Source of the DNA: Deltaproteobacteria bacterium
GTDB taxonomy: Bacteria > Desulfobacterota > Desulfuromonadia > Desulfuromonadales > JAAYDE01
Assembly: GCA_016926265.1 (NCBI GenBank)
Contig: JAFGOW010000051.1
Coordinates: forward strand, 1-35,855
DNA length: 35,855 nt
Direction of reading: 5' to 3'
Shown: in pieces, positions 14,304 through 26,157 of the stretch
Numbering within the stretch: position 1 is the first letter of the stretch
Layout: each line of letters starts with the position of its first letter
Made by a program: the position numbers and the translations under genes
The notes under the pieces: generated by a model
What the model saw: only the letters and a program-made list of their open reading frames with translations
Databases searched by the model: none
Told to the model about the DNA's origin: nothing

Positions 14304-16409
14304 ATGAAACGGTTGATTTTCCGGACTTTTTTCGTCTCCATCCTGTTATTCCTGTTTTCCTCTTCCTTCTCGCCGGCTGCCGAGGAACGTCCCGCCTCCT
14401 ACGAGGCCGAGCGGGTCAAGGTTTTGAGCTTCATCATCCGGCAGCATCTGTCCCGCCACCATTTCAGCCGCAAAACCTTCGATGACAGTCTGTCCCAGGC
14501 CGCCTTCTCCCTTTTCCTGGAGCAGATCGATTATCAGAAGAGGTTTCTGACCCAGTCCGATGTTCTTGAACTGAAGGCATTCGAAAATCTGATCGACGAT
14601 GAAATGGTCCTCGGCCAGGTCGATCTGCCCGTGGTTTCTCACCGGCTGATGAAAAAACGGGTCGAAAAGGCCGAGCAGATGGTGGACCGCCTGCTCCGCG
14701 CCGGTCTGGATTTCAACCTCCAGGAACAGCTGGAGACCGATCCGAAAAAACGCTCCTTTTGCGCCACGGCTTCGGAATTGGCGGAGCGATGGCGTAAACT
14801 TCTGAAATATCAGACGATTATTAATTATTTGGAGATTTCGGAGCAGCAGCGCGAAGAGGGGGGCCGCGGCGGCCAGGGGAAAGGCCATTCCGAGGAGGCG
14901 CTCTGGCAAAAGGCCCAGGAAAAGACCCGCAAGAGTTTTCAGCACCTCTTTTCCCGCTTGCGCCGGCAGGATATCCGGACCTACTACTCGCTTTATCTCA
15001 ACGCGGTGGCCCGGGCTTTCGACCCCCATACCAACTACCTGGATCCCAATACCGAAGAGGATTTCGACATCAGCATGAAGGGCTCTTTGGAAGGGATCGG
15101 CGCCAGTCTGCGCGAGGATGACGGTTTCATCAAGGTGGTCGAAATCATTCCCGGCAGCGCCGCGGCGCGTCAGGGGCAGCTGGCCAAGGAGGATACCATC
15201 CTCAAGGTCGCCCAGGGAGCGGGCGAGCCGGTCGATGTGTCGGAAATGCGCCTGCGGGATGCGGTCAGGCTGATCCGCGGCAAAAAGGGGACGGAGGTCC
15301 GGCTGACGGCCCAGAAACCGAACGGCGACATCCTGGTGGTGCCGATTGTGCGGGATGTGGTCAACATCGAAGCGACCTTCGTCAAAATGGCCTCCCTGGT
15401 GGACCCGAAAGGGGAGCGCCCCCGATTCGGCTATATCCACATTCCGGCCTTCTATCGCGATCTGAATGCCAACGGCAAGGGGGAGCGGGGACGGAACGCC
15501 ACCGATGATTTTCGGGCAGCGCTCGAGACGCTGCAGAAGGACGGGGTGCGCGGACTGATTATCGATCTGCGCAATGATGGGGGGGGCGCCTTGCAGGACG
15601 CCGTCAACATCGCCGGTCTGTTTATCGATAAGGGGCCCATCGTTCAGGTCAAAGACAGCCAGGGGCAGATGAAAACCCTTTCGGACCCCGAAGAGGGGGT
15701 GGTTTTCGGCGCTCCCGTCGTGGTGCTGGTCAACAAATTCAGTGCTTCGGCTTCGGAAATTCTGGCCGCCGCTCTCCAGGATTACGGTCGCGCCGTCATT
15801 CTGGGGGGGGAGCACACCCACGGCAAGGGGACGGTCCAGGCCCTGATCGATCTGGATCAGGGTTATTTTTCCCGGAAGATGGAAAAATACGGGCCGCTGG
15901 GGGCGCTCAAGGTGACGATCCAGAAGTTTTATCGGGTCAACGGCGACTCGACCCAATCCCGCGGGGTGATTCCGGATATCGTGCTTCCCGATCGCCTCGC
16001 CGTTCTGGAAAGCGGCGAGCGGTACCTGACCCATTCGCTGCCGTGGGACCGGGTGCCCCCCGTCCATTACGAGCCATGGCCGGCGGCGGCCGGCGGTCTT
16101 GACGGTCTGCGGCGGGAGAGTCTCGAACGGGTGGAGAAGAATAGCGCCTTCGCCCGTATTCTCCAAGAGACCGCTCTGGAACGTAAAAAAATCGCCAACA
16201 CCCTGCGGCCGCTGAGTTTGGACCAGATTCGGGCGGAGCGGAAGGCGCTGGAACAGATCCGCAACGGCAAGGAGCTCCGGTTCGAGGATTACCAGGTCAG
16301 GGAAGCGGGGCTTTCGGACCAGAAAGAAAGCGCCCTCTCGGAACAACTGGTACGGGATCCCTACGTACAGCAGGCGTTTCTGGTCCTTCGGGAGCTGGCC
16401 AAACGCTGA
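14304..16409 (+). CDS. prc: carboxy-terminal (tail-specific) processing protease
   Basis: 701 aa. Signal peptide, SLEGIGASLREDDGFIKVVEIIPGSAAARQGQL (PDZ), GLIIDLRNDGGGALQDAVNIAGLFI, VVLVNKFSASASEILAAALQDYGRAVILGGEHTHGKGTVQ (Ser/Lys catalytic region). Confidence 0.95.
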   Translation: MKRLIFRTFFVSILLFLFSSSFSPAAEERPASYEAERVKVLSFIIRQHLSRHHFSRKTFDDSLSQAAFSLFLEQIDYQKRFLTQSDVLELKAFENLIDDEMVLGQVDLPVVSHRLMKKRVEKAEQMVDRLLRAGLDFNLQEQLETDPKKRSFCATASELAERWRKLLKYQTIINYLEISEQQREEGGRGGQGKGHSEEALWQKAQEKTRKSFQHLFSRLRRQDIRTYYSLYLNAVARAFDPHTNYLDPNTEEDFDISMKGSLEGIGASLREDDGFIKVVEIIPGSAAARQGQLAKEDTILKVAQGAGEPVDVSEMRLRDAVRLIRGKKGTEVRLTAQKPNGDILVVPIVRDVVNIEATFVKMASLVDPKGERPRFGYIHIPAFYRDLNANGKGERGRNATDDFRAALETLQKDGVRGLIIDLRNDGGGALQDAVNIAGLFIDKGPIVQVKDSQGQMKTLSDPEEGVVFGAPVVVLVNKFSASASEILAAALQDYGRAVILGGEHTHGKGTVQALIDLDQGYFSRKMEKYGPLGALKVTIQKFYRVNGDSTQSRGVIPDIVLPDRLAVLESGERYLTHSLPWDRVPPVHYEPWPAAAGGLDGLRRESLERVEKNSAFARILQETALERKKIANTLRPLSLDQIRAERKALEQIRNGKELRFEDYQVREAGLSDQKESALSEQLVRDPYVQQAFLVLRELAKR

Positions 16410-16446: not shown

Positions 16447-17178
16447 TCAGCTGTCGGGGAGCAGTTTTCGGCTTTTCGCCACGAAGGGGCTCTGAGGGAA
16501 TTCTTTGGCTAGCTGTTGAAAGGTTTCCACGGTTTTCGGCAGGTTGGCGCTGTGGAAGTAGGCTTGCCCCAGCAGAAAGTAGGCCTCATCCTTTCTTCCG
16601 AAATCGGGGAACTCCGCGAACAGCGCCTGAAAACGCCCGATGGCCGCCGGATATTCTTTGGTCCGCAGATAAAAACGGCCAACGTAGAATTCGTGTTCGG
16701 CCAATTCCTGGCGCAGCTCGGCGACCTTGGCGGCGGCATTGGCGGCCTGGGGATCGTCGGGAAACATCCGGATCAGGCTCTGGAAGGTGACCAGGGCGTT
16801 GAAAGTGGCGGTCTGATCCCTGTCGGGGGTGAGCCTCTGATGAAAATAGCAGAGGCCAAGCTTGTACATGACCTCGGGGGTTCTGCGGGCTTCGGGGTGG
16901 CGCTTGAGGAAGTTTTCGTAGGTGGCGGTGGCTTCGGGATATTCCTTGGCTTTGAAGTGGGCTTCGGCGATCTTTAATTCCGCCAGCATGTTGAGCTGGG
17001 GAGAGAGGTAGGCGTCAAGCACCTTCTGCCAGTTTTCAATGGCCTCCCGGTAATTCCCCTTTTCCATCTGCTGTTCCCCGCGCTGGAAATGCTCCTCCGG
17101 CGAGAAATAGGTCTGCTTTTTTTCCAGCAGGGAGCAGGCGGAAAGCAGGAGCAGCAGCAAAGGGACAAGCCATTTCAT
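16447..17178 (-). CDS. bamD: outer membrane protein assembly factor BamD
   Basis: Start at MKWLVPLLLLLLSACSLLEKK (lipobox LSAC), then TPR-type repeats with EYPEATATYENFLKRHPEARRTPEVMYKLGLCYF. Confidence 0.88.
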   Translation of the reverse strand: MKWLVPLLLLLLSACSLLEKKQTYFSPEEHFQRGEQQMEKGNYREAIENWQKVLDAYLSPQLNMLAELKIAEAHFKAKEYPEATATYENFLKRHPEARRTPEVMYKLGLCYFHQRLTPDRDQTATFNALVTFQSLIRMFPDDPQAANAAAKVAELRQELAEHEFYVGRFYLRTKEYPAAIGRFQALFAEFPDFGRKDEAYFLLGQAYFHSANLPKTVETFQQLAKEFPQSPFVAKSRKLLPDS

Positions 17179-17324
17179 AGGATGCACGCTGACCGGGAAA
17201 TTGGGCACAGGGACGACCGAGTGGACGGCACCAATGTATCCGGACCCTTTCCTCGCTGTCAATGGCGTTTTTGGGCCGCGTCAAGCAGCGCCGGTCGCTC
17301 CGGCCCGGCGGCCCGCCGCCGCCC

Positions 17325-18182
17325 TCAGGCCAGCAGCTGGGCGGCTTCGGGCTCCAGGATATTCCGCAACTTTTTCAAGGCGTTGCTTTCCAGTTGCCTG
17401 ATCCGTTCCCGGCTCAGCCGGTAGCGGTCCGCCAGATCCTGAAGAGTGGCGGGGCGCTCGGAAAGGATCCGCGCCTCGATGATGGCCCGTTCCCTGTCGT
17501 TGAGCTGCAGCAGCGCCCCATGGACCTGGCTGGCGACGGTTTCCTCCTGTTCCTGCTGGAGGTACTCCTGCTCCTGGTTGTCCCGCGGGTCGGGGAGGGT
17601 GTCCAGCAGCGTGTAGTCGCTTCCCTCCATCAGGGGGATGTCGATGGAGGCGTCGCGTCCGTTGACCCGGCACTCCATCTCCTCCAGCTCTTCCAGGGCC
17701 ACATCCAGCTCCCGCGCCGCTTCGATTCTCGGGTATTCGTCCCCCATCTGCCGGAAGGCGCGGCGGACCTGACCCAGTTTGAAGAACAGCTTTTTCTGGG
17801 CCTGGGTGGTGCCGATCTTGACCAGAGACCAACAGCGGATGATGAAGTTGTTGATGTAAGCCTTGATCCACCAGACCGCATAGGAGATGAGCCGCAGCCC
17901 TTTGTCCGGATCGAATTTCTTCACCGCCATCATCAGCCCGATGTTGCCCTCCTGGATCAGATCGAGGGTCTTCATGCCGTAACCCCGATATTCATGGGCG
18001 ATTTTGACCACGAAACGGAGATTGGAACAGATCAGCCGTTGCGCCGCCTCCAGGTCGCCGTGGCGCCGGTAGCGGGATGCCAGTTCCTGTTCTTCCTCCC
18101 GTGAAAGGAGTTTGAACTGTTTGATCTGGCTCATGTAGTATTCCAGGGAATCGGAAGCGGCAAGGGTCGAAAGATGGTTCAT
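17325..18182 (-). CDS. rpoH: RNA polymerase sigma factor RpoH (sigma-32 type)
   Basis: LICSNLRFVVKIAHEYRGYGMKTLDLIQEGNIGLMMAVKKFDPDKGLRLISYAVWWIKAYINNFIIRCWSLVKIGTTQAQKKLFFKL. Start chosen at MNHLSTLA (18182) because AAAGGAGG precedes it; the ORF-track ATG at 18212 lies inside the CIRCE-like element. Confidence 0.93.
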   Translation of the reverse strand: MNHLSTLAASDSLEYYMSQIKQFKLLSREEEQELASRYRRHGDLEAAQRLICSNLRFVVKIAHEYRGYGMKTLDLIQEGNIGLMMAVKKFDPDKGLRLISYAVWWIKAYINNFIIRCWSLVKIGTTQAQKKLFFKLGQVRRAFRQMGDEYPRIEAARELDVALEELEEMECRVNGRDASIDIPLMEGSDYTLLDTLPDPRDNQEQEYLQQEQEETVASQVHGALLQLNDRERAIIEARILSERPATLQDLADRYRLSRERIRQLESNALKKLRNILEPEAAQLLA

Positions 18183-18201
18183 GTCTTCGGGGCCTCCTTT
18201 T

Positions 18202-18228
18202 TTGGCACTCATCAGAAGGGAGTGCTAA
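18202..18228 (-). promoter_or_regulatory. CIRCE element (HrcA operator) in the rpoH leader
   Basis: TTGGCACTC (18202-18210) - 9 nt ATCAGAAGG - GAGTGCTAA (18220-18228). Consensus is TTAGCACTC-N9-GAGTGCTAA, so 17 of 18 positions match with the exact spacer length. Confidence 0.9.
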
Positions 18229-18237
18229 CAGCACTAT

Positions 18238-18266
18238 TTTATAGCAGAGACGGCCCCCGGTTTCAA
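18238..18266 (-). promoter_or_regulatory. sigma70-type promoter of rpoH (TTGAAA-17-TATAAA)
   Basis: Reverse strand: TTGAAA (18266-18261), 17-nt spacer, TATAAA (18243-18238). The CIRCE begins about 10 nt downstream of the -10. Confidence 0.75.
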
Positions 18267-18963: not shown

Positions 18964-19752
18964 ATGCTGAAATTCATGGAGCGGGTGGGGGACGATTGCC
19001 TGTATTTCCTGGAACAGGCGGGACGGATGGGGATCTTTCTGTTCAACTGCCTGCTCGGCATCCTCCGTCCCCCCTACAAGCTGGGGCCCACCATCCGTCA
19101 GCTCCACTTCATCGGCGCCCGTTCCATCTTTGTCATTCTCTTTACCGGCGCCTTCACCGGCATGGTCCTCGCCCTCCAGGGCTATTACGCCCTGCGCAAG
19201 GTCGGCTCCGAGGGCTTTCTCGGCTCCGCCGTCGGTTTGAGCCTGATCCGGGAGCTCGGTCCGGTGCTGACCGCTCTCATGGTGGTCGGCCGGGCCGGCT
19301 CGGCGATCTGCGCCGAGATCGGCATCATGCGCAATTCCGAGCAGATCGACGCCCTGGAATGCATGGCCATCGACCCCCACAAATACCTGATGGCGCCGAA
19401 ATTCATCGCCGGCATTCTTTCCCTGCCGCTGCTCACCTTCATTTTCGACGTCATCGGGATTTTCGGGGGCTACGTGGTCGGGGTCGGCCTCTTCGGGGTC
19501 AACGAGGGGGCCTATTTTCAGGGGATGTATTCCAGCGTGGATTGGCCGGATATCCATATGGGGATCGTCAAATCGCTGGCATTCGGCCTGCTCATCATCT
19601 GGATCGCCGCCGCCAAAGGCTATTTTCTTCATTTTGAGCGCAGCGGCGGTTTCGGGGCCGAAGGGGTCAGCCGGACCACTACCAACGCGGTGGTACTCTC
19701 GTCGGTGACGATCCTGGTCTGGAATTACCTGATCACCGCCATTCTGCTGTGA
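18964..19752 (+). CDS. mlaE: MlaE-family lipid ABC transporter permease
   Basis: 262 aa. GAFTGMVLALQGYYALRKVGSEGFLGSAVGLSLIRELGPVLTALMVVGRAGSAICAEIGIMRNSEQIDALECMAIDPHKYL is characteristic of MlaE. Confidence 0.96.
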   Translation: MLKFMERVGDDCLYFLEQAGRMGIFLFNCLLGILRPPYKLGPTIRQLHFIGARSIFVILFTGAFTGMVLALQGYYALRKVGSEGFLGSAVGLSLIRELGPVLTALMVVGRAGSAICAEIGIMRNSEQIDALECMAIDPHKYLMAPKFIAGILSLPLLTFIFDVIGIFGGYVVGVGLFGVNEGAYFQGMYSSVDWPDIHMGIVKSLAFGLLIIWIAAAKGYFLHFERSGGFGAEGVSRTTTNAVVLSSVTILVWNYLITAILL

Positions 19753-19813
19753 CGGGAGGCGGCCGCTCCGGCCTCTGGGGGGGGCACGGTGCGGAATCGC
19801 CGGGGAAAAGACG

Positions 19814-20620
19814 ATGGTCGAAGACAACCGCAAGGCAATCATTGAACTGATCGATCTGGAAAAATCCTTCAAACAGCAGAAGGTTCTCGACGGGGTGAAC
19901 CTGACCATCCGGGAAGGAACCACCATGGTGATTGTCGGGGCCAGCGGCCAGGGGAAGAGCGTTCTGCTCAAGCATATGCTGGGGCTTCTGAAGCCGGATC
20001 GGGGCCGGGTACTGGTGTTCGGCCGGGATCTCTCCACAATCGGCGGCAAGGAACTCAAGGAGGTCCGCCAGGAGTATGGGGTGCTGTTCCAGAATGTGGC
20101 GCTCTTCGATTCCATGACCGTCTACGACAATGTGGCGCTGCCGTTGCGGGAGCGGACCAAATCCAGCGAAGCGGAAATCCGGAGCCGGGTCGAAGAGAAA
20201 CTGGCCCTGATGGACCTGCAGGGAACGGAAGATAAATTCCCGGCCCAGCTCAGCGGCGGCATGAAAAAAAGGGTGGGGCTGGCCCGGGCGCTGATGCTGA
20301 ATCCGAAGATCGTTTTTTTCGACGAACCGACCACTGGGCTCGATGTCAGCCGCAGCAACGAGATCTACCGGCTTTTTTACAAGACCCAGGCCCAGTTGAA
20401 GTATACGGCCGTGATCGTCAGCCACGACGTTCCCAAGATTTTCAAGCTGGCCGATTATGTCGCCCTGGTGGCGGGGGGCAAGGTTCAGGAGTGCCTCACC
20501 CCGGAAGATTTCCAGCTTTCTCAGAACCCGGCCATCAAAGCCTTTGTCAAGGAAACCATGGGTCCCATATACTCGAGCGAAGAGGAGGAAATGGGTTTTT
20601 ATGAAACGGATCAACGCTGA
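19814..20620 (+). CDS. mlaF: MlaF-family lipid ABC transporter ATP-binding protein
   Basis: 268 aa. GASGQGKSVLLKHMLGLLKPD (Walker A region), LSGGMKKRVGLARALMLNPKIVFFDEPTTGLD. Confidence 0.95.
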   Translation: MVEDNRKAIIELIDLEKSFKQQKVLDGVNLTIREGTTMVIVGASGQGKSVLLKHMLGLLKPDRGRVLVFGRDLSTIGGKELKEVRQEYGVLFQNVALFDSMTVYDNVALPLRERTKSSEAEIRSRVEEKLALMDLQGTEDKFPAQLSGGMKKRVGLARALMLNPKIVFFDEPTTGLDVSRSNEIYRLFYKTQAQLKYTAVIVSHDVPKIFKLADYVALVAGGKVQECLTPEDFQLSQNPAIKAFVKETMGPIYSSEEEEMGFYETDQR

Positions 20621-21047
20621 AACGGCGGTCGGCCTTTTTCTGGTGGCCGGTTTTTTGTGCTTTGCCTATCTTTCGGTCAAACTCGGCGACGTGAGCCTGT
20701 TCGGCGATAAAACCTATTCCGTTGTCGCCCGCTTCAATTCGATTTCCGGGCTCAAAGAGGGCGCCACGGTGGAAATTGCCGGGGTCAAGATCGGCAAGGT
20801 GGCGCGGATCACCCTGCTCCCGGAATCCTATCAGGCGCAGGTGGAGATGGGCATCAACCGCGGCGTCATTTTGCAGGAGGACAGCATCGCCTCCATTCGC
20901 ACCGCCGGCATCATCGGCGATAAATATGTGAACATCTCCCCCGGCGGCTCCCCGGAAATCATCAAGCCGGGCGGGCGGATCGTCGAAACCGAATCGGCCA
21001 TCAATCTGGAGGAGATGGTCAGCAAATACATCTTTGAAAAGAAATAG
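20601..21047 (+). CDS. mlaD: MlaD-family (MCE domain) protein
   Basis: Start at MKRINAETAVGLFLVAGFLCFAYLSVKLG, overlapping the mlaF 3' end. ARFNSISGLKEGATVEIAGVKIGKVARITL and AGIIGDKYVNISPGG are MCE signatures. Confidence 0.95.
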   Translation: MKRINAETAVGLFLVAGFLCFAYLSVKLGDVSLFGDKTYSVVARFNSISGLKEGATVEIAGVKIGKVARITLLPESYQAQVEMGINRGVILQEDSIASIRTAGIIGDKYVNISPGGSPEIIKPGGRIVETESAINLEEMVSKYIFEKK

Positions 21048-21064
21048 CCGGAGACTGCCCCTTC

Positions 21065-21850
21065 ATGAAAAATCGGGTTGTGTTTGCTGTTGTTTTGCTG
21101 TTCTGGGTTATCGCCGCGCCGGGCTGGAGCCAAAGCCGGGAAGGGTCCGAAAGCTCTCGGGAGGCGGTTTCAGGCCAATCGCCGGGGCAGGGGGAAGAAG
21201 AATTCGTCGATCCCTTTGAAAAGGACCCCTTTGATGACAAGCCTCAGGAGCTCCGCATCGCCGACCCCATTGAGCCGATCAACCGGGGGATTTTCTGGTT
21301 CAACGACAAGCTCTATTTCTATTGTTTGAAACCGGTGGCCAGGGTTTTCCGGGTCGTCCCCGAGCCGGCCCGGACGGCCGTGGACCGTTTCTTCTCGAAC
21401 CTCGGCACGCCGGTGCGTTTCGCCAACGCCCTGCTCCAGCTCAAGGTGAAGGATGCCGGCACCGAGGCAGGCCGCTTTGTCCTCAACACCACCGTCGGCA
21501 TGGGCGGCTTTCTCGATCCCGCCAAAACTATGGGGATGGCGAAGAAAGAAGAGGATTTCGGACAGACCCTGGGATATTATGGAGTCGGCCACGGTTGCTA
21601 TCTGGTGCTGCCGTTGTTCGGTTCCTCCAGCCTGCGGGACGGGACCGGGCGGGTGGCCGACAATTTTCTCGACCCTCAGACCTATCTGCTCACCCCATGG
21701 TGGCGGCTTGGAGGGCGAGCCCTGGACACGGTCAATTTCCTCTCCCTGGACAAGGACAGCTACGAAAGCATCAAAAAGGCCGCCCTGGATCCTTACCTGT
21801 TCCTCCGCAATGCCTATGCGCAGCGCCGCCAGGGCTTGATCAACAAATAA
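21065..21850 (+). CDS. mlaA: MlaA/VacJ-family protein
   Basis: 261 aa. DPIEPINRGIFWFNDKLYFYCLKPVARVFRVVPEPARTAVDRFFSNLGTPVRFANALLQLK and EDFGQTLGYYGVGHGCYLVLPLFGSSSLRDGTGRVAD. Confidence 0.94.
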   Translation: MKNRVVFAVVLLFWVIAAPGWSQSREGSESSREAVSGQSPGQGEEEFVDPFEKDPFDDKPQELRIADPIEPINRGIFWFNDKLYFYCLKPVARVFRVVPEPARTAVDRFFSNLGTPVRFANALLQLKVKDAGTEAGRFVLNTTVGMGGFLDPAKTMGMAKKEEDFGQTLGYYGVGHGCYLVLPLFGSSSLRDGTGRVADNFLDPQTYLLTPWWRLGGRALDTVNFLSLDKDSYESIKKAALDPYLFLRNAYAQRRQGLINK

Positions 21851-22984: not shown

Positions 22985-24712
22985 TCATTCCCCGCGGCGC
23001 GATTCTCCAGGGCACGGCAGCGGGATTTCCGCCACCGTCATTTTGGCTCCGGTCCGGGTGAAATAGAGGAACAGCACCACGGTGCGGGGGCGGAATTCGG
23101 GCCGCTGCGAAAACGCCGCCGCGAAGTGCTGCATCTTGATCCCCTGCCCCTTGATCCGCGCCAGTTCCTGCCCGACCCGGTCCTGTACGGCGGCCTTTTC
23201 CTCCGGGGTCAGGCTGGTGTCGAAAGGGAGCGGCGGCCGTGATTCCGCCGGGCGTTCCGAGCGGGCGCAATCCAGGGCCAGCAGTTCCATCAGGGGAGCG
23301 GCCTCGCCGGCCGGGAACCGATCCCCGATGAATTCGCCGAGCCTCCGAAAGATATCGCGCTGCTGCAAAGGGAACCGGAACAGGTCGCGATCCTTCCAGA
23401 ATTCACACAGCGCTTGCAGCGCCTCAGCGGCGGAGCCGCAGGAGCGGCTAAGCCCCTTCCAAGCCCTGGGGAAAACCCCGCTGTTGTAAATCAGGTCCAC
23501 GAGGCGACCGACTTTCCGCAGCAGTTCCAGTTCGGCGCAGGAGAGATCCGGGGTCGCCAGCACCGTGTAGGGTGGGTTGGGGTCGAAGCGAAGCCCTCGG
23601 TCGGCTGCTTCGCCCCGGAGCGGGGAGCCGGGGAGCAGTTTGACCGGCTCGATCTGGAGATGATGGGGTTCGAAGGCCAGCACCTGATCGATGGCGGCCA
23701 GAAACGGCCTCATTCCCTCGCCGGGAAGTCCGGCGATCAGATCGAGATGCAGGGTGATGCGGGTGTCGCGGCGCAGTTTCCGGAGCTGATCCCAGGTTTT
23801 TTCCGGGGAGACCCGGCGCCGGATGGCGGCCAGGGTTGCCGGGGAGAGGGACTGGATCCCGATTTCAAACTGGAACATTCCTTCGGGAACCTGGGAAAGC
23901 AATTGGAGGGTGGCGTCGTCAAGCCGTTCGGCGCCGATCTCGAAATGAAAGTGGCTGCCGCGGTTGTTTTCGAGGATAAAGGAGAAAATCTCCCGGGCCC
24001 GGTCCGGATCGTAATTGAAGGTGCGGTCCACCAGCTTGATCTTGGGAACCTCCCGCTCCATGAGGAAAAGGAGATCGGAGCGGATGCGCTCCATGGAGAA
24101 GGAGCGGACCATGGGGTCGAGGGAACTCATGCAGAAGGAACAGCGATAAGGACAGCCGCGGCTTGTTTCCAGATAGACGAAGCCGCGGTTGAGATCGACC
24201 CATCCCGCCGCAAACGGGGAGGGGATGTCGTCCAGACGGGAAAGGGGGGGGCTCCAGGCCCCTTCCGCCGGCCCTGATGCCGTTCTCCAAAGGGTCCGGG
24301 GGGTGCCGGCCGGGCTGGCGCCCGCCGTGAGGCGTTTCAGGATCTCCCGGAAGGGCGCCTCCCCTTCCCCTCTGACCAGACCGCGGATGCCGGGATGGCG
24401 CTCCAAAAGCTCTTCCCCATCGAAGGAGACCTCCGGCCCCCCCAGAATGATCGGGAGCTCCGGGACTGCGACCGCGACGGCGTCCACCAGTTCCAGGACC
24501 GCCCGCCGGTTCCAGATGTAAACGGAAAACGCCAGGAGATCGGGCTTTTGTTCCAGAATGGCGGCGAAGATCTGATCCTTGGGTTCGTGGACCGTGAATT
24601 CACGGAGCAGGATTTCGCAGTTCGTCACTTCCCCGCAAAAGGTGGCGAGATAGGGGAGCGCCAGGCTGGGGTGAATGAATTTGCTGTGCAGGGTGGCCAA
24701 TAAAACGCGCAT
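22985..24712 (-). CDS. B12-binding domain radical SAM protein (DUF4080-type)
   Basis: Start at MRVLLATLHSKFIHPSLALPYLATF. PIILGGPEVSFDGEELL, then LETSRGCPYRCSFCMSSLD (CX3CX2C). C-terminal region VDLIYNSGVFPRAW... is typical of DUF4080 proteins. Confidence 0.88.
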   Translation of the reverse strand: MRVLLATLHSKFIHPSLALPYLATFCGEVTNCEILLREFTVHEPKDQIFAAILEQKPDLLAFSVYIWNRRAVLELVDAVAVAVPELPIILGGPEVSFDGEELLERHPGIRGLVRGEGEAPFREILKRLTAGASPAGTPRTLWRTASGPAEGAWSPPLSRLDDIPSPFAAGWVDLNRGFVYLETSRGCPYRCSFCMSSLDPMVRSFSMERIRSDLLFLMEREVPKIKLVDRTFNYDPDRAREIFSFILENNRGSHFHFEIGAERLDDATLQLLSQVPEGMFQFEIGIQSLSPATLAAIRRRVSPEKTWDQLRKLRRDTRITLHLDLIAGLPGEGMRPFLAAIDQVLAFEPHHLQIEPVKLLPGSPLRGEAADRGLRFDPNPPYTVLATPDLSCAELELLRKVGRLVDLIYNSGVFPRAWKGLSRSCGSAAEALQALCEFWKDRDLFRFPLQQRDIFRRLGEFIGDRFPAGEAAPLMELLALDCARSERPAESRPPLPFDTSLTPEEKAAVQDRVGQELARIKGQGIKMQHFAAAFSQRPEFRPRTVVLFLYFTRTGAKMTVAEIPLPCPGESRRGE

Positions 24713-24769
24713 GGCGGATGACGGGGTTGGGGGCGGAGGCCGGCGCCGGGGAAGGAGTCCGGAGCCGCA

Positions 24770-24798
24770 TTGTCCACGGTTGCCGGTTATGTTATCAT
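24770..24798 (+). promoter_or_regulatory. candidate sigma70-type promoter (TTGTCC-17-TATCAT) for the downstream radical SAM gene
   Basis: TTGTCC at 24770-24775, 17-nt spacer, TATCAT at 24793-24798, about 30 nt before the ATG at 24829. Confidence 0.5.
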
Positions 24799-24828
24799 TG
24801 CCGGGCTTGAAATAGAACCCATGGAAAT

Positions 24829-26157
24829 ATGAGCAAAAACAAAACAATTCTGGCCGTGGCCGCCAACTGCCGGGGGGAGGTTTTCGAACACCCCGAACTC
24901 CTGGCGGCCGGCATGAACGGCGGCCGGGTCCGGCTTCCCCGGTCCGAGGAAATGATCCCCTTGCCCGCCGGAAGCCGGCTCTTCACGCTGCCCGGAAAGC
25001 CGTTGCGGGGGTTTGAACGGCGAACCGGCCGAGCCAGAACGGAGAGAGAGCTTCCCAGGCGCTGGGGGGGAGGAAAAATCCAAGCGGTTTCCGCGTTCGT
25101 GGCCCCGGCTTACATGCGTACCCTGCTTCCCGCCGCGGATTTTTCCCCCTCGGAGAGGAATCTGCCGCTGTGGGCCTATACGGCCGTGGGCTGGTGTCTG
25201 GAGGAAGCCCGTTTCTATGTCGCGGCGGTGAGAGTGGACCAAAGCCGCCAATGGGATCCGGATCAGTTCGACGATCGCCTGGTGGAGCCCAATACCCGGG
25301 CGGCGCTGAAAGAGCATCCCGACAACCGTTTAATCGAGCAATTGGCCCGCTGCGCCCTCGATTATCACTGCTTTGCGGCCAAAAACCTGTTTCTGGGGCG
25401 CTGGGAGGCGCCGCTTCCAACTTCCCCGGTCTGTAACGCCGAGTGCCTGGGATGCATCTCCCTCCAGGAATCGGAGTGCTGCCCGGCGAGCCAGGAGCGC
25501 ATCACCTTCGTCCCCACGGTGGAAGAGCTGTGCGGGGTGGCGGTGCCGCATCTGGAGCGGGCCGAGCACGCCATCGTCTCCTTCGGACAGGGCTGCGAGG
25601 GGGAGCCGATTCTGCAGGCCGATCGGATCTGCGAAGCGGTCCGGGAGATGCGGCGGCGGACCGGCCGCGGGACCATCAATTTCAACACCAACGGCTCCCT
25701 GCCGGAAGCGGTGGACCGGCTTGCCGCGGCGGGCATCGATTCGATGCGGATTTCCCTCAACTCGGTGCGGGAACCCTGTTACCAGGCCTATTACCGGCCG
25801 CGGTGCTATTCCTTCCGGGATGTCCTGGATTCCGTCCGCAGGGCCAAGCAAAACGGCTTGTTCACCATGCTCAACTACCTGGTTTTCCCGGGCCTCAGCG
25901 ATCTTCCCGAAGAGATTGACACGCTGCTGCGGCTGGTGGAGGAAACCGGCCTTGATATGATCCAGATGCGCAACCTCAGCATCGACCCCGGCCTTTACTC
26001 CCACGCCCTCTCTCTGGGCCGCGAAGGGGTTGGCATGAAAACCATGCTGGATCAGATCAAAACCCGGATACCCCGGATTCAGTTCGGTTACTTCAATCGG
26101 ACCAAGGAGGCGTTTTATCCGCCGGGGTTTGAGGCCGATTGGCCTTTGCCCGTCTAG
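24829..26157 (+). CDS. radical SAM protein of unknown function with about 190-aa N-terminal extension
   Basis: 442 aa. Central CNAECLGC (CX3CX2C) and INFNTNGSLPEAVDRLAAAGIDSMRISLNSV support the radical SAM call. The N-terminal ~190 aa is not a domain I recognise. Confidence 0.85.
   Translation: MSKNKTILAVAANCRGEVFEHPELLAAGMNGGRVRLPRSEEMIPLPAGSRLFTLPGKPLRGFERRTGRARTERELPRRWGGGKIQAVSAFVAPAYMRTLLPAADFSPSERNLPLWAYTAVGWCLEEARFYVAAVRVDQSRQWDPDQFDDRLVEPNTRAALKEHPDNRLIEQLARCALDYHCFAAKNLFLGRWEAPLPTSPVCNAECLGCISLQESECCPASQERITFVPTVEELCGVAVPHLERAEHAIVSFGQGCEGEPILQADRICEAVREMRRRTGRGTINFNTNGSLPEAVDRLAAAGIDSMRISLNSVREPCYQAYYRPRCYSFRDVLDSVRRAKQNGLFTMLNYLVFPGLSDLPEEIDTLLRLVEETGLDMIQMRNLSIDPGLYSHALSLGREGVGMKTMLDQIKTRIPRIQFGYFNRTKEAFYPPGFEADWPLPV

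What the first reader, a model, noticed from the sequence alone, without database searches (positions are those of the whole stretch)
18202..18266. rpoH under a CIRCE operator and a sigma70-type promoter
The rpoH leader carries TTGGCACTC-N9-GAGTGCTAA, one mismatch from the HrcA/CIRCE consensus with the exact 9-nt spacer. It sits just downstream of TTGAAA-17-TATAAA on the rpoH strand. CIRCE classically controls groESL/dnaK operons, so this places the positive heat-shock regulator (sigma32) under the negative one (HrcA) and implies a regulatory cascade. The element overlaps the ATG at 18212, so the true start is probably 18182, where AAAGGAGG precedes the codon. I recall HrcA/RpoH interplay being studied in Geobacter, so this may not be new for the clade.
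Basis: partly seen in the sequence, partly recalled or inferred. Interest (0 to 1): 0.6.

Follow-up and report, generated by a model that had tools for sequence, protein, structure and literature searches.

The report
HrcA operator on heat-shock sigma gene
The gene for the heat-shock sigma factor RpoH carries, right at its predicted transcription start, a near-perfect binding site for the heat-shock repressor HrcA; this is real and was already predicted in Geobacter sulfurreducens in 2004, but here it proves to be conserved across nearly all sampled members of the bacterial class, so the two classic heat-shock circuits are probably wired in series there.

Summary
A CIRCE element (17 of 18 consensus positions, exact 9-nt spacer) lies at 18202-18228, 9 nt downstream of an extended -10 promoter (TTGAAA-17-TATAAA with TG) and just before the Shine-Dalgarno of rpoH, whose true start is 18182. 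The same MAG encodes HrcA, under its own perfect CIRCE. These are the only two full-core CIRCEs in the assembly; groEL is not assembled. Relatives show it is not chance. CIRCE stands before rpoH in 33 of 34 assessable genomes of the order (21 families sampled), in 34 of 34 rpoH copies of a sister order, and in 16 of about 120 upstream regions from the rest of the phylum. Misses have 6 or more mismatches, so the split is clean. Distance to the -10 is tight (median 1 nt); distance to the start codon varies (2-51 nt). This fits a DNA operator over the start of a sigma70 promoter: HrcA represses rpoH, and heat derepresses it. Rodionov et al. 2004 already listed this site for G. sulfurreducens rpoH, but for no other species. 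New here is the breadth and the promoter geometry. HrcA binding and heat induction are inferred, not shown. Interest is modest.

The parts
18202..18228 (-). CIRCE operator, TTAGCACTC-N9-GAGTGCCAA on the rpoH strand
   Evidence: 1 mismatch of 18; 0 in 100 shuffles; conserved in relatives
18261..18266 (-). -35 element TTGAAA
   Evidence: the same hexamer and 17-nt spacing in the same-genus genome G001
18238..18246 (-). extended -10 element TG-C-TATAAA (TG at 18246-18245, TATAAA at 18243-18238)
   Evidence: extended -10 called in 50 of 68 rpoH promoters with CIRCE
18231..18231 (-). inferred transcription start (7 nt after the -10); CIRCE would then lie at about +4 to +30
   Evidence: inference from promoter spacing; not mapped
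18193..18200 (-). Shine-Dalgarno AAAGGAGG
17325..18182 (-). rpoH, heat-shock sigma factor sigma32, 285 aa, start ATG at 18182
   Evidence: TIGR02392 338.8 bits, cut-off 323.1; the start is conserved in G001 and the protein aligns from residue 1 at 81% identity
18360..18947 (+). divergent neighbour, putative rRNA methylase (PF06962); shares the intergenic region

Best explanation
The element is a working HrcA operator. HrcA binds CIRCE as a dimer over the start of transcription of a sigma70-type extended -10 promoter and blocks RNA polymerase, keeping rpoH low. When heat or misfolded protein draws GroEL away, HrcA loses activity; rpoH is then derepressed together with the other CIRCE operons (hrcA-grpE and, in relatives, groESL), and the extra sigma32 switches on its own regulon. 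Shown here: the operator, the promoter geometry, hrcA in the same genome, and deep conservation. Inferred: HrcA binding, repression, the GroEL link (established for HrcA in Bacillus) and heat induction.
For: CIRCE with 1 mismatch, unique in the window. HrcA in the same genome, with a perfect CIRCE behind its own TTGACA-17-TATTTT promoter. CIRCE before rpoH in 33 of 34 assessable genomes of the order and in 34 of 34 rpoH copies of the sister order. Among 68 sites the -10-to-CIRCE gap is tight (median 1, SD 3.1) while CIRCE-to-start varies (2-51, SD 10.9), so position is held relative to the promoter. The 99 distinct sites found all have 2 or fewer mismatches. CIRCE clusters on the RpoH tree: 4 changes against 21 in shuffles. 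38 of 39 relatives encode HrcA.
Against: No binding, footprint, start-site or expression data. In this genus the site sits 6-8 nt further downstream of the -10 than in most relatives (9 and 7 nt against a median of 1), so occlusion might be less direct. The promoter is assigned by consensus only.
Confidence: 0.87

Rival explanations
1. CIRCE acts mainly as an RNA hairpin at the 5' end of rpoH mRNA, setting mRNA stability or ribosome access (a thermometer), instead of as a DNA operator.
For: The transcript would carry a 6-bp GC-rich stem a few nt before the Shine-Dalgarno, and E. coli rpoH is controlled by mRNA structure (general knowledge).
Against: The distance from CIRCE to the start codon is not conserved (2-51 nt) while the distance to the -10 is. 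15 of 68 sites have an A.C combination at position 3/25, which breaks the RNA pair, against 1 with G.U. The 5' end is not clearly more stable than shuffles (z -1.6).
Confidence: 0.05
2. The promoter is also or instead read by sigma32 (autoregulation), with CIRCE as a second layer.
For: CTTGAAA equals the sigma32 -35 consensus in the window, in G001 and in 15 of 99 sites in all.
Against: No CCCCAT-like -10: the sigma70 pattern fits better (mean 3.3 of 12 mismatches, shuffled 4.7) than the sigma32 pattern (5.1 of 13, shuffled 5.8). In the window the sigma32 fit has 3 mismatches, the sigma70 fit 2. Rodionov et al. list no sigma32 promoter for G. sulfurreducens rpoH.
Confidence: 0.07
3. The match is a chance palindrome, or a site no longer used in this lineage.
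For: The assembly is a MAG with 84.65% completeness, and the site has one mismatch.
Against: 0 in 100 shuffles; full-core CIRCE occurs only twice in 2.77 Mb, at hrcA and rpoH; it is conserved in nearly every relative while the surrounding sequence has diverged.
Confidence: 0.01

Closest known systems
CIRCE at rpoH of Geobacter sulfurreducens (Rodionov et al. 2004, PMC545781, Table 8)
   Same: Same operator, same gene, similar position (-51 there, -46 to -20 here), hrcA operon also under CIRCE.
   Different: One distal-arm change here; different genus. The paper lists it for G. sulfurreducens only; here it is found throughout two orders of the class.
HrcA/CIRCE control of hrcA-grpE-dnaKJ and groESL
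   Same: TTAGCACTC-N9-GAGTGCTAA at or just after the start of a sigma70 promoter; HrcA encoded in the genome.
   Different: The target is a regulator (sigma32), not a chaperone.
E. coli rpoH control
   Same: A sigma70-type promoter drives rpoH (general knowledge).
   Different: E. coli has no HrcA (it did not ring in the control genomes); its rpoH is set mainly by mRNA structure and DnaK/FtsH turnover (general knowledge).

Membership tests
CIRCE operator | TTAGCACTC-N9-GAGTGCTAA with exact 9-nt spacer | tested here: met
   17 of 18 positions, spacer 9
CIRCE operator | hrcA in the genome | tested here: met
   G000:C210:955-1608, PF01628 219 bits, cut-off 22.2; N-terminal DNA-binding domain just over its cut-off
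CIRCE operator | placed at the promoter/start of a heat-shock gene and conserved | tested here: met
CIRCE operator | HrcA binds and represses | not testable with these tools
   needs EMSA/footprint and an hrcA mutant
RpoH (sigma32) | TIGR02392 equivalog over cut-off | tested here: met
   338.8 against 323.1 bits; the only match over cut-off in the genome
sigma70-type promoter | TTGACA/TATAAT-like hexamers with 16-18 nt spacing | tested here: met
   2 mismatches of 12, spacing 17, TG extension
sigma32 promoter | CTTGAAA-N11/16-CCCCAT | tested here: inconclusive
   -35 perfect, best fit 3 mismatches of 13, all in the -10

The most novel reading that the evidence does not exclude
HrcA control of sigma32 is an ancestral, near-obligatory trait of this whole class, not a quirk of G. 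sulfurreducens, so that in these bacteria the negative heat-shock system sits above the positive one.
Probability: 0.8. Interest if true: 0.42.

Novelty: new member of a known kind. Interest (0 to 1): 0.3.

Why it matters
HrcA/CIRCE and sigma32 are usually treated as parallel heat-shock systems. A conserved operator on rpoH would put them in series across a whole class of bacteria that includes the metal reducers. The wiring can be tested in Geobacter sulfurreducens. The prediction itself has been in print since 2004, so the added value is breadth and geometry.

Tried and rejected
(1) A weaker, tuned rpoH operator compared with hrcA: over 25 paired genomes rpoH was worse in 8, hrcA in 5, 12 ties, p = 0.58; rejected as a general rule. 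(2) Loss of the groESL CIRCE in this genus: the window's assembly has no groEL, and in G001 the contig ends 311 nt before groEL, so nothing can be said. (3) RNA hairpin function: not supported by geometry or pairing. (4) sigma32 autoregulation: weak. (6) Ueki and Lovley 2007 on RpoH of G. sulfurreducens (cited in PMC2725144) is not held, so whether it tested HrcA on rpoH is unknown to me. (7) A first scan of relatives left minus-strand loci unturned and was redone.

Full report
WHAT IS THERE. The window holds rpoH on the minus strand (17325-18182). Its product passes the curated RpoH equivalog model (TIGR02392, 338.8 bits, cut-off 323.1) and is the only match over that cut-off in the genome. 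The in-frame ATG at 18212 lies inside the CIRCE spacer. The protein of the same-genus genome G001 aligns from the start at 18182 and its DNA aligns there too.

IS IT CHANCE. It is the only match with up to 3 mismatches in the window, and none appeared in 100 shuffles. In the whole 2.77-Mb assembly the 6+6 core with the 9-nt spacer occurs without mismatch only twice: here and before hrcA. Permuted inverted repeats of the same composition and spacer gave 6 hits for 40 motifs together, against 66 for CIRCE, in the same loci.

HRCA AND THE REST OF THE CIRCUIT. hrcA is present with a perfect CIRCE 8 nt after a TTGACA-17-TATTTT promoter, followed by grpE. The host is a MAG, 84.65% complete, and has no groEL in the assembly, so the groESL site cannot be checked here.

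CONSERVATION. Among 39 genomes of the order (21 families), 34 gave a strong rpoH match and one more a partial match (G028). One of these (G011) is cut by the contig end. Of the 34 assessable, 33 have a CIRCE with 0-2 mismatches before rpoH; G019 alone lacks it. In a second order of the class all 27 loci plus 7 further upstream regions have it. In a sample of the whole phylum it occurs outside the class in 16 of about 120 upstream regions (counted by hand). The distribution is bimodal: 0-2 mismatches or 6 and more, the latter like the reversed-motif control. Named records show the same. On a quick RpoH tree the label needs 4 changes, against 21 when shuffled. Whether this is one origin or several is not settled; many deep branches are unresolved.

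HOW IT WORKS. If CIRCE served as an RNA element its distance to the start codon should be held; if it is a DNA operator its distance to the promoter should be. Over 68 sites the gap to the -10 has median 1 and SD 3.1, the gap to the start codon ranges 2-51 with SD 10.9; both come from automatic calls, and some are probably misassigned. In addition 15 of 68 sites carry A and C at the third pair of the palindrome, which would break an RNA stem. The RNA fold of the window's leader is a 6-bp hairpin, not clearly beyond shuffles (z -1.6). So the best reading is a repressor operator over the transcription start of a sigma70-type promoter. The sigma70 pattern fits the promoters better than the sigma32 pattern, relative to shuffles, although the -35 CTTGAAA in this genus also equals the sigma32 consensus. 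That HrcA activity depends on GroEL is established knowledge from Bacillus, not tested here.

WHAT IS KNOWN. Rodionov et al. 2004 (PMC545781) searched delta-proteobacteria for CIRCE, reported a site at -51 of rpoH in G. sulfurreducens and named no other species for rpoH. RpoH of G. sulfurreducens was studied by Ueki and Lovley in 2007 (cited in PMC2725144); the text is not held. In the held library no other paper found here joined HrcA, CIRCE and rpoH in this group. The finding is thus a new member of a known kind; the new part is that the link is nearly universal in the sampled class.

VERDICT. Observation confirmed, interpretation supported at sequence level, mechanism likely but not shown. 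Interest modest.

Noticed in passing
L141, L145, L275-L277, L279, L281 and other family f22 genomes: The rpoH CIRCE has a core change in the promoter-proximal half (TTAGCAGTC), while other CIRCEs in the same genomes are mostly canonical in the core; this may mean an asymmetric or weaker operator.
   Followed up: partly
G009 and G029 (family f7): Both near-complete genomes of this family gave no RpoH match but keep HrcA and CIRCE at hrcA and groEL; sigma32 may have been lost and HrcA left alone.
   Followed up: partly
L110 (G019): The only assessable genome in the order whose rpoH upstream lacks CIRCE, although hrcA is present.
   Followed up: no
rpoH versus hrcA operators in the order: Departures from consensus fall mostly in the distal arm at rpoH (18 against 6) and in the proximal arm at hrcA (13 against 4); counts are not corrected for relatedness.
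   Followed up: partly
window 14304-16409 and 18964-21850: Tail-specific protease (S41/PDZ) and a run of Mla-type genes (MlaE, ABC ATPase, MlaA) near rpoH and bamD (16447-17262); an envelope-maintenance neighbourhood.
   Followed up: no
window 22985-24847 (-): B12-binding radical SAM protein, best match the KedN5 family but far below its cut-off.
   Followed up: no
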